From Candidatus Rokuibacteriota bacterium (GTDB lineage: Bacteria; Methylomirabilota; Methylomirabilia; Rokubacteriales; CSP1-6), in the NCBI GenBank assembly GCA_003220535.1, contig QHSU01000083.1:1-64000 (forward strand): DNA of 64,000 nt, in the 5' to 3' direction. Within the stretch, counting starts at the first letter, position 1; every line of letters begins with the position of its first letter. The notes beneath the pieces are model-generated. The model was not told the origin of the DNA. It was given only the letters and a program-made list of their open reading frames with translations, and searched no databases. Position numbers and translations under genes: made by a program. Shown here in pieces: positions 9,095-11,342 of this stretch.

Positions 9095-9913
9095 CTAGGG
9101 TGCCTCGACGCGCTTGGGGACACTCACCGGTGTGAACGACACGAGGACCTTGCCGACCTTCGTGTCGGTGCTGAACAGCCCCATGGCCGAGATCCGTCTG
9201 TGCTCGGCCTCGGCGACCTTGCCGACGCCATCGGCGTAGAACGTGTACAGCGTGTCCCTGACCGTGACGACCGCCAGGATGTCGATCTGATAGTCAGTCC
9301 TGATGAGGACGGCGCTGAAGGCGCCGGCGGGCGTGGTGACCCGATACACGCCGGCGTACACGGTCGTCGCTCGGATGCGGCCGGTGTACCACTTCATCGC
9401 CGGATTGTTCGAGCTGTACACGTCCATCCGGCCGTCGAACACCCGGCTCTCCCCAGGCCCGAGACCCACGATCAAGTAGCTCAACGGCGGGTCGAAGTGC
9501 ACCAGCGCCTCATACGCATGCGTGACCTGACTGGGCAGGACGAGACTACCTTCGTCGGTCCAACGCAGGTACAGCGTAGACTCTTGGCCGATCGTCCTCT
9601 TCCAGGTCTCGCCTCGAGTCGTCAGGCCGATCGGTGCCAGACTCTCGAGCTCCATCTGACCGCGACGCGCGCCGGCCGTGATCCGGTAGCGCCATTCGCC
9701 AGCCTCCCACCGCGCGACCCTGGCCGGGTCGCTCAGTGACGACGCGGCCGTCGGGTCTCCTACGACGCCCTCACCGAGAACCAGAAGCAGATCACTCGGC
9801 GCCCGACTCGGTGAGATGCCCTGGGCGCCGGCAATCAACGGCGACGGCCCATCCAGCGAGCCGGACGAGAGGATGATCCCGGCCAGCACGAACACGATCC
9901 GCTCTCGGAGCAT
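9095..9913 (-). CDS. Secreted protein of unknown function (272 aa)
   Basis: ATG 9913 gives a good signal peptide (MLRERIVFVLAGIILSSGSL, cleavage around IAGAQG); the longer frame to 9967 would bury it. The mature part is beta-rich (LYLRWTDEGSLVLPSQVTHA, FDGRMDVYSSNNPAMKWYTG, TTVYAGVYRVTTPAGAFSAV) and looks like a lipocalin- or DUF3108-type shell without visible catalytic residues. The motif TPAGxFxxxxI is common in such periplasmic proteins. Function is unknown. It is co-directional with the luciferase-like gene. Confidence 0.65.
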   Translation of the reverse strand: MLRERIVFVLAGIILSSGSLDGPSPLIAGAQGISPSRAPSDLLLVLGEGVVGDPTAASSLSDPARVARWEAGEWRYRITAGARRGQMELESLAPIGLTTRGETWKRTIGQESTLYLRWTDEGSLVLPSQVTHAYEALVHFDPPLSYLIVGLGPGESRVFDGRMDVYSSNNPAMKWYTGRIRATTVYAGVYRVTTPAGAFSAVLIRTDYQIDILAVVTVRDTLYTFYADGVGKVAEAEHRRISAMGLFSTDTKVGKVLVSFTPVSVPKRVEAP

Positions 9914-10014
9914 GGCGTCTCTTCTCGGCAAACTGAGCGATGATACCTCCGCCGCGCTCACACGCATCTACGTACGCGATCCTGCGCGTCACGGTTCCCG
10001 AGTAATCCTTGAGA

Positions 10015-10112: not shown

Positions 10113-10155
10113 GATCAGAGCGAACCGTAAGTCTCAGCGGGGCCAGAAAAATCGG

Positions 10156-10194
10156 TCGTGCCGCATCGCGGCACGATTGGCACGGTCACTGCAG
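10156..10194 (+). promoter_or_regulatory. Inverted repeat plus sigma54 (-24/-12) promoter
   Basis: TTGGCACGGTCACTGCAG has GG at 10179-10180 and GC at 10191-10192, 10 nt apart, and differs from the TTGGCACG-N4-TTGCA consensus at only one conserved base. Immediately upstream a 9-bp inverted repeat (TCGTGCCGC 10156-10164, GCGGCACGA 10168-10176) could be a regulator site overlapping the promoter face. Transcription would start near 10203. Confidence 0.75.
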
Positions 10195-10202
10195 TAGTCC
10201 AG

Positions 10203-10264
10203 ACGGGCCTGAGCACAGGCCGCAACAGCGCCGTTGCGAAGCTCGCAGCGGCGCTGTCTTTTTC
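10203..10264 (+). ncRNA. Two-hairpin leader or small RNA ending in an intrinsic terminator
   Basis: Downstream of the predicted start are a perfect hairpin (GGCCTG 10206-10211 with CAGGCC 10216-10221) and then a long stem: CAGCGCCG (10226-10233) pairs with CGGCGCTG (10249-10256), extended inside by TGCGA/TCGCA around an AGC loop. The run TCTTTTT follows at 10257-10263. Together this is a textbook intrinsic terminator about 60 nt after the promoter. The product could be a stable sRNA, or an attenuator controlling read-through into the gene at 10300. Confidence 0.6.
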
Positions 10265-10299
10265 GAGGAGCGAGCGCCGATGAGGAGGGACCGTTCGGG

Positions 10300-10884
10300 A
10301 TGACGATGCGCCAACGAGTCGCAAGCTTGACAGTCGCGGGTCTACTCGTCACTGGCAGTGTTCTCGAGCTCACGCTGCCGCCGTCTCGACCGGCGAGCCC
10401 CGGAGCCGACGCGCGGACCCGGCAGTCAGAGCGTCGAGCGATGTGGGCGACGCGGGACACGGCGTGGGTCGCTCACGTCGCCGTCGTGGACGAGGCGCTC
10501 GCCCGCGCTGACATCAGCGCCGCGGTACGGGCCTGGCACGACGCGTACGGCGCCGCCCTGGCGGCCGGCAGCTGGGAAGCCATGCTGAGCGTCGGCGACG
10601 CGGTGGTCAGGGTCGGCCAGGCCGCCGAGGCGCGGATGGGAGCTCGTCCCAATGCGCGGCAGGCGTATCTGACCGCACTGCTTCGCGCGCAACGGGACGG
10701 CTCGGTCGACGGAGTGCTCCGGATCGCGGAAGCCTTCCACGCCCTCGGCGATCGCGCCGTTGCGCTACAGTGCGCCCGCCTCGCGATCCGGATCGCCGAA
10801 GCGCAGGTGGACGCGGTCGAGATGGAGCGAGCCAGAACATTCACAGCCACCCGGCTGGGATCTCTCATGACGACGGAGAACTGA
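10300..10884 (+). CDS. Membrane-anchored or secreted helical (TPR-like) protein, unknown
   Basis: ATG 10300 gives a hydrophobic N-terminus (RVASLTVAGLLVTGSVLELT) followed by a helical region with repeated Ala-rich pairs (RADISAAVRAWHDAYGAALA, YLTALLRAQRDGSVDGVLRI, FHALGDRAVALQCARLAIRI) that resemble tetratricopeptide-type helices. It is about 195 residues. AGGAGG lies 11 nt upstream, inside a 7-codon mini-ORF (10278-10301) whose stop overlaps the ATG. It shares one transcription unit with the universal stress protein gene, downstream of the sigma54-type promoter and terminator. Confidence 0.6.
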   Translation: MTMRQRVASLTVAGLLVTGSVLELTLPPSRPASPGADARTRQSERRAMWATRDTAWVAHVAVVDEALARADISAAVRAWHDAYGAALAAGSWEAMLSVGDAVVRVGQAAEARMGARPNARQAYLTALLRAQRDGSVDGVLRIAEAFHALGDRAVALQCARLAIRIAEAQVDAVEMERARTFTATRLGSLMTTEN

Positions 10885-11342
10885 TGGCGAAGCGAATCCT
10901 TGTCCCGGTAGACCGAACGCACGAGATGGAGTTTGTCCTGAGCCTCGTGCGGGTCATCGCACGTGAGAGCGGCGGCAGCGTCCGCTTGCTCAGCGTGATC
11001 CCGGTCCCTACACCGATGCGCGACCGCCTCGATCGTGTGATCGTCTCGACCGAACGGCAGATCGAGCGGCTCGAGCGGCGCGCCACCGATGAGCTTCGCC
11101 GGATGGCGGTGATCAACCTCGACGGCGTCCCGGTCGAGACGAGCGTGATCTTCGGCGATCGCTCCGTCGAGATCGGCCGGGAGGCGGAGTGTTTCGGCGC
11201 CGACCTCGTCGTGATGCCGCCGGAGCGCCGGCGCGGCCCAGCCGCGAGGATCGCCGCGCTCGCACGGAGCCTGATCGCCGGACGGCCGCTCGCGGTCGAT
11301 GTCATGCGTCTGCGGGCGCTACGGGCCGAGCCGACGATGTGA
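10884..11342 (+). CDS. Universal stress protein (UspA family)
   Basis: A 152-residue USP-fold protein: KRILVPVDRTHEMEFVLSLV at the N-terminus is the first strand and helix, and GVPVETSVIFGDRSVEIGRE with FGADLVVMPPERRRG corresponds to the conserved second half. The canonical ATP-binding G-x2-G-x9-G-S/T loop is altered here (RRRGPAARIAALARSLIA), so ATP binding is uncertain. Its ATG shares one base with the preceding stop (TGATG), so the pair is translationally coupled and placed under the sigma54-type promoter at 10179. Confidence 0.8.
   Translation: MAKRILVPVDRTHEMEFVLSLVRVIARESGGSVRLLSVIPVPTPMRDRLDRVIVSTERQIERLERRATDELRRMAVINLDGVPVETSVIFGDRSVEIGREAECFGADLVVMPPERRRGPAARIAALARSLIAGRPLAVDVMRLRALRAEPTM

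What the first reader, a model, noticed from the sequence alone, without database searches (positions are those of the whole stretch)
10156..10300. sigma54 promoter driving a ~60-nt hairpin RNA with intrinsic terminator before a stress operon
A one-mismatch -24/-12 promoter is followed at the expected start by two perfect hairpins and a T-tract, and only then by the gene pair ending in a universal stress protein. Either a sigma54-dependent small RNA is made, or read-through of the terminator controls the operon. A 9-bp inverted repeat abuts the promoter and a 14-bp palindrome lies 73 bp upstream. A 7-codon mini-ORF overlapping the ATG adds a second possible control layer.
Basis: partly seen in the sequence, partly recalled or inferred. 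Interest (0 to 1): 0.74.

Follow-up and report, generated by a model that had tools for sequence, protein, structure and literature searches.

The report
Sigma54 promoter with ANTAR-type terminator leader
In a soil bacterium of the uncultured phylum Rokubacteria, a stress-protein operon starts at a sigma54 promoter and then meets a built-in stop signal whose RNA carries the hairpin signature read by ANTAR antitermination proteins, so the operon is probably switched twice, once at the start and once at the stop.

Summary
A one-mismatch -24/-12 site (10178-10193) is followed by hairpins and the only strong hairpin-plus-T-tract in the 64 kb window, then a helical-protein gene and a universal stress protein gene. 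The genome is Rokubacteria. The same layout precedes the homologous gene pair in another genus (G033:C41, locus L013): TGGCACG-N5-TGCAGTAG, two hairpins, T-tract. The two terminator stems differ on both sides at 6 of 13 aligned pairs and stay paired. Homologs of the first gene carry sigma54-type promoters in most loci, so the promoter is not a chance match. Both leaders hold two C(AnnGnn)G hexaloop elements, the literature signature of ANTAR targets; this occurs once in 128 kb of window strand (here) and in 0.06% and 0.005% of shuffled leaders. The amtB-glnK operon of the same genome has sigma54 promoter, dual ANTAR hairpins and terminator, and a receiver-ANTAR protein is encoded beside amt and glnA. 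Most likely this is a sigma54-started leader attenuated by an intrinsic terminator and opened by ANTAR antitermination, not a stand-alone sRNA. The upstream palindromes and mini-ORF are not conserved. In the window the second ANTAR hairpin is weak, and no binding or transcript data exist.

The parts
10126..10132 (+). CGTAAGT motif upstream of the promoter; also upstream of G003, amt and many P0001-family sigma54 sites
   Evidence: read directly in the anchored promoter set and amt promoters; spacing to -24 is 51 nt here and in G003, about 28-30 elsewhere; role unknown
10156..10176 (.). 9-bp inverted repeat TCGTGCCGC-ATC-GCGGCACGA abutting the promoter; also terminator-like on the minus strand
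   Evidence: not conserved in G003, G007 or G033, function doubtful
10178..10193 (+). sigma54 -24/-12 promoter TGGCACGGTCACTGCA (one mismatch)
   Evidence: position conserved in G033:C41, G003:C232 and G007:C68; homologous genes enriched for such sites
10204..10204 (+). predicted transcription start (12 nt after the C of the -12 element)
   Evidence: inferred from sigma54 promoter geometry; not measured
10206..10221 (+). leader hairpin 1, GGCCTG-AGCA-CAGGCC; loop without the ANTAR A1/G4 residues
10221..10238 (+). ANTAR-type hairpin CGCAAC(AGCGCC)GUUGCG: hexaloop A1/G4, closing C:G, 6 bp; mutually exclusive with the terminator, whose 5' arm it overlaps
   Evidence: best match of the amt-leader covariance model in the 64 kb window (19.3 bits)
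10245..10254 (+). second C(AnnGnn)G element GC(AGCGGC)GC, linker 6 nt, only 2 bp plus imperfect extension
   Evidence: weak as a hairpin
10225..10263 (+). intrinsic terminator: perfect 15-bp stem (10225-10257) and C-T5
   Evidence: counterpart in L013 with 6 of 13 pairs changed on both sides
10280..10303 (+). 7-codon mini-ORF MRRDRSG with stop overlapping the ATG of the next gene
   Evidence: sequence; not conserved (L013 has a different 31-codon frame)
10300..10884 (+). P0001: N-terminal hydrophobic segment plus helical, repeat-like domain; Rokubacteria family without Pfam match
10884..11342 (+). P0002: universal stress protein

Best explanation
The region is a sigma54-started attenuator leader. 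RNA polymerase with sigma54 (woken by an unidentified enhancer-binding protein) starts at about 10204. The first ~60 nt fold into an intrinsic terminator that stops most transcription and leaves a ~59-nt RNA. The 5' arm of the terminator can instead form an ANTAR-type hexaloop hairpin (10221-10238). When a receiver-ANTAR protein binds it, together with the second loop, the terminator cannot form and the P0001-USP operon is read. Shown here: promoter and terminator conservation, the hairpin signature, presence of sigma54 and ANTAR proteins, and the same design at amtB-glnK. Inferred: start site, termination, ANTAR binding, and the signal (most likely nitrogen status).
For: Same layout before homologous genes in another genus, G033:C41: TGGCACGCGCAGTGCAGTAG, two hairpins, T4, P0001 homolog (about 57% identical), USP (about 44%) (z = -6.4). 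Terminator stems: 6 of 13 aligned pairs changed on both sides, none broken. In same-genus orthologs G003 and G007 the -24/-12 remains in place though the genes have decayed. 13 of 47 upstream regions of P0001 homologs score >=10/12 against 0.8 +/- 0.9 in shuffles and 0 antisense. rpoN is in G000, G003 and G033, and tens of activators in G000. C(AnnGnn)G pairs: window CGCAAC(AGCGCC)GUUGCG + GC(AGCGGC)GC, linker 6; L013 GGCUUC(AUCGGU)GAAGCC + a hairpin with loop AGUGGC folding at -8.8 kcal/mol over the terminator 5' arm. Once in 128 kb of window strand, in the leader; shuffled leaders 0.0006 and 0.00005, random perfect terminators 0.00015. Signature from PMC3369931 and PMC7496416. amtB-glnK leaders of G000, G002, G004, G006 and G008: sigma54-like promoter, P1 GCGAC(AnnGnn)GTCGC with varying loop, P2 over the terminator. 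An amt-leader covariance model run over 64 kb has its best hit at 10220-10278. ANTAR proteins in 42 of 57 family genomes including G000 and G033; in G000 a receiver-ANTAR protein lies beside amt, glnA and a urea-type binding protein gene.
Against: In the window the second hairpin has only 2 bp plus mismatches, and the upstream hairpin (10206-10221) lacks A1/G4, so the canonical two-hairpin motif is complete only in L013. The canonical hairpin overlaps the terminator from the P1 side, not P2. Left alone, the terminator (-28.3 kcal/mol) is far more stable than the ANTAR hairpin (-7.1). The amt model scores the L013 leader at only 4.6 bits, and its E-values are too optimistic on GC-rich DNA. Only two complete leaders exist. 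USP operons are not classical nitrogen genes.
Confidence: 0.6

Rival explanations
1. Attenuator without ANTAR: a sigma54 promoter followed by a fixed, leaky intrinsic terminator that merely sets the level of the operon; the hexaloops are by-products of GC-rich palindromes.
For: Terminator and promoter are conserved while the ANTAR elements are incomplete in the window; short T-tracts (5 and 4 T) fit leaky termination.
Against: Dual C(AnnGnn)G elements in both leaders are rare by chance; amtB-glnK leaders of the same genome show the full ANTAR design; ANTAR proteins present.
Confidence: 0.25
2. Stand-alone sigma54-dependent small RNA of about 60 nt acting in trans, like CrcZ, Qrr or Pxr, with the operon expressed by read-through.
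For: Strong 5' hairpin directly at the start site and a terminator give a compact stable RNA; sigma54-dependent sRNAs are known.
Against: Always tied to the same two genes in the two genomes that have it; apart from the GCGCCG terminator core and the promoter the RNA sequence diverges, with no conserved single-stranded seed; no Rfam match at gathering score.
Confidence: 0.08
3. Leader-peptide or translation-coupled attenuation through the mini-ORF.
For: 7-codon ORF with good Shine-Dalgarno ends on the P0001 ATG; L013 has an open frame ending at the same overlap.
Against: The window ORF lies downstream of the terminator and L013's is a different, longer frame; no shared peptide.
Confidence: 0.03
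4. Chance assembly: a random -24/-12 match near a terminator.
For: One-mismatch -24/-12 sites are not enriched genome-wide.
Against: Conservation in G033, G003 and G007 and enrichment in the gene family.
Confidence: 0.03

Closest known systems
ANTAR target leaders upstream of ammonium transporter and PII genes (PMC3369931)
   Same: Short leader, hexaloop hairpins with A1 and G4, overlapping intrinsic terminator, ANTAR protein in the genome; Rokubacteria amtB-glnK leaders fit fully
   Different: In the window the second hairpin is weak and the controlled genes are a P0001-family gene and a universal stress protein, not nitrogen genes
Klebsiella nasF leader with NasR (PMC7496416; its sigma54/Ntr control is my own knowledge)
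   Same: Sigma54 promoter plus ANTAR-controlled terminator, C:G closing pair, A1/G4 loops
   Different: The likely regulator is a receiver-ANTAR protein, not NIT-ANTAR; signal unknown
Sigma54-dependent sRNAs (Vibrio Qrr, Pseudomonas CrcZ, Myxococcus Pxr; own knowledge)
   Same: Sigma54 promoter and short terminated RNA
   Different: Here the RNA is the leader of an operon and carries antitermination hairpins; no conserved pairing seed seen

Membership tests
ANTAR target RNA | Hexaloop hairpin with A at position 1 and G at position 4 | tested here: met
   CGCAAC(AGCGCC)GUUGCG 10221-10238; L013 GGCUUC(AUCGGU)GAAGCC
ANTAR target RNA | Two such hairpins in tandem | tested here: inconclusive
   L013: yes, second hairpin with bulged A residues at -8.8 kcal/mol; window: second element only 2 bp plus mismatches
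ANTAR target RNA | Closing C:G pair at the loop | tested here: met
   both elements of both leaders
ANTAR target RNA | Linker of about 5-12 nt between the hairpins | tested here: met
   6 nt in the window; 10 nt in L013 if P2 is counted as its top 2 bp, about 3 nt if its full extended stem is counted
ANTAR target RNA | Hairpin overlaps a mutually exclusive intrinsic terminator | tested here: met
   10221-10238 overlaps the terminator 5' arm 10225-10239; in the window it is the first, not the second, canonical hairpin
ANTAR target RNA | ANTAR protein encoded in the genome | tested here: met
   receiver-ANTAR domain architecture in G000
ANTAR target RNA | Binding by ANTAR protein and antitermination | not testable with these tools
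   needs in vitro transcription or binding assay
sigma54 promoter | GG at -24 and GC at -12 with correct spacing, at a conserved position | tested here: met
sigma54 promoter | Sigma54 and activators present in the genome | tested here: met
sigma54 promoter | Identified activator binding site | tested here: inconclusive
   9-bp repeat and 14-bp palindrome not conserved in G003, G007 or G033; the real site was not identified
stand-alone sRNA | Conserved RNA independent of the downstream gene | tested here: not met
   found only before P0001-USP; pattern search of 57 genomes found no other close copy

The most novel reading that the evidence does not exclude
The terminated ~59-nt leader RNA, which carries an ANTAR hairpin, also works in trans as a decoy that soaks up the cell's receiver-ANTAR protein, linking stress-operon transcription by sigma54 to the amt/PII nitrogen regulon (as sRNA-borne ANTAR sites sequester EutV in Enterococcus and Listeria).
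Probability: 0.08. Interest if true: 0.75.

Novelty: new member of a known kind. Interest (0 to 1): 0.5.

Why it matters
It extends a two-step switch (sigma54 initiation plus ANTAR antitermination), described mainly for nitrogen genes in cultured bacteria, to an uncultured phylum and to a universal stress protein operon. It gives a testable regulon for Rokubacteria (amtB-glnK plus P0001-USP) and shows that the uncharacterised P0001 family is very probably under sigma54 control.

Tried and rejected
Rfam at gathering threshold on the whole window: nothing; permissive scan of the leader: only sub-threshold hits to unrelated families. DNA search for the leader in 59 relatives: no leader homolog. 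Extended promoter pattern TGGCACGN5TGCAGTAGN3GACG in 57 genomes: only G033 without mismatch, the rest at chance level. MAFFT alignment of the two leaders is not structure-consistent, so a two-sequence covariance model was not built. Upstream palindromes as activator sites: not conserved. Mini-ORF or leader peptide: not conserved. Minus-strand terminator-like hairpin 10176-10156: not conserved in the orthologs. Structure of P0001 from a single sequence: low confidence (pLDDT 59), helical only, so no fold search was run.

Full report
What is there. The window is contig C80 of a 7.2 Mb genome; relatives found by protein search are named Candidatus Rokuibacteriota. Between a divergent DUF3108-like gene (9095-9967, minus) and the pair P0001 (10300-10884) and universal stress protein (10884-11342) lie a -24/-12 site at 10178-10193, a hairpin at 10206-10221, a perfect 15-bp hairpin at 10225-10257 and T5. 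The first-stage description is correct, except that the 14-bp palindrome is imperfect.

More than chance? A one-mismatch -24/-12 site alone is worthless as evidence: the genome has 82, the mirror pattern 80. The terminator is the only stem of 10 bp or more with a T-tract on both strands of the window, and the RNA folds 6.3 sd better than shuffles. The proof is conservation. In G033:C41, another genus of the family, the homologous gene pair is preceded by TGGCACGCGCAGTGCAGTAG, a hairpin starting at the expected start site, and a second hairpin with T4; that RNA has z = -6.4. Pairing the two terminator stems in register from the T-tract gives 13 pairs: 7 identical, 6 changed on both sides, none broken. 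This is a hand alignment of two sequences and so is limited. In G003 and G007 of the same genus the locus is decaying: most of P0001 is gone (a remnant resembling its last codons is still readable), USP is truncated or internally deleted, but TTGGCAC-N5-CTGCC stays in place while the T-tract is gone.

The promoter belongs to a family. Homologs of P0001 occur in most Rokubacteria searched. Their upstream regions hold -24/-12 sites scoring 10/12 or better in 13 of 47 cases against 0.8 +/- 0.9 in shuffles and none on the antisense strand. An anchored set of 35 such promoters shows a T-tract centred about 17 nt upstream of TGG and an A about 28 nt upstream, neither of which was used for selection; the site pattern itself was. 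In G000 and G033 a tandem P0001-type pair lies head to head with a sigma54 activator gene. The sigma54 gene is present in G000, G003 and G033 (not found in the incomplete G007). Only the P0001-USP versions (window and G033) have a terminator in the leader.

How it probably works. Looking at the other -24/-12 sites of G000, one (C116:38544) is also followed by hairpins and a terminator; it drives amtB and a PII gene. Its leader carries the literature signature of ANTAR antitermination: two hairpins with hexanucleotide loops with A at 1 and G at 4, the second overlapping the terminator (PMC3369931, PMC7496416). In amt leaders of G000, G002, G003, G004, G006 and G008 the first loop varies (AACGTC, AAGGAG, AGCGAC, AACGAG) but keeps A1 and G4; in more distant relatives A1 is often G while G4 stays.

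The P0001-USP leaders carry the same signature, less completely. Window: CGCAAC(AGCGCC)GUUGCG over the terminator 5' arm, then GC(AGCGGC)GC after 6 nt. L013: GGCUUC(AUCGGU)GAAGCC, then a bulged hairpin with loop AGUGGC, closing C:G, over the terminator 5' arm, -8.8 kcal/mol. The combination occurs once in 128 kb of window strand, exactly here. In shuffled leaders it appears at 0.0006 (window) and 0.00005 (L013), and at 0.00015 in random leaders built with a perfect terminator. Over 1.13 million strand-bases of other loci, 18 raw hits (several of them copies of one place) include the L013 leader and one amt leader. A covariance model built from amt leaders, run without filters on 64 kb, has its best hit at 10220-10278 (19.3 bits; next 16.2). 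Its E-values are unreliable on GC-rich DNA (five hits below 0.05), so I count rank only, and the same model does not recognise L013 (4.6 bits). The threshold of 2 bp for the second hairpin was mine and post hoc.

The regulator exists. ANTAR domains are found in 42 of 57 family genomes, including both that carry this leader. In G000 one is a receiver-ANTAR protein between glnA and a urea-type binding-protein gene, near amt and a response-regulator sigma54 activator.

Verdict. I commit to a sigma54-initiated, terminator-attenuated leader, with ANTAR antitermination as the most likely switch (0.6 for the full statement; about 0.85 that regulated or leaky termination of a sigma54 transcript is what happens). 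The short RNA is then the aborted leader. The sRNA reading, the mini-ORF and the palindromes have no independent support. As a mechanism this is known; what is new is the target operon, the phylum and the sigma54-controlled P0001 family.

Noticed in passing
L209 (G000:C77:53000-58500) and L117/L210 (G033:C285): Tandem P0001-type genes lie divergently beside a sigma54 activator gene; in G000 it encodes a 1070-aa or longer protein with sigma54-activator, Fis-type HTH and a second AAA ATPase domain.
   Followed up: partly
L016-L030, L052-L058 upstream regions: Many P0001-family promoters have GACCAC or CCACCACC direct repeats 50-70 nt upstream of -24 and a T-tract about 17 nt upstream; possible activator sites of an undescribed sigma54 regulon.
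   Followed up: partly
L225-L251: Rokubacteria amtB-glnK operons carry a sigma54-like promoter (CGGCAYG-N4-TTGCT), dual ANTAR hairpins and a terminator.
   Followed up: partly
L034 and L035 (G007:C68, G003:C232): Orthologous P0001-USP loci are decaying: P0001 deleted and USP truncated, while the -24/-12 remains.
   Followed up: yes
window 10176-10156 (minus) and L013 1185-1169 (minus): Both loci have a minus-strand terminator-like hairpin with an A-tract (plus strand) upstream of the sigma54 site; meaning unclear.
   Followed up: no
L237/L248 (G005:C658): Two inverted, identical amt leader copies on one contig, one facing each way; possibly an assembly artefact or inverted duplication.
   Followed up: no
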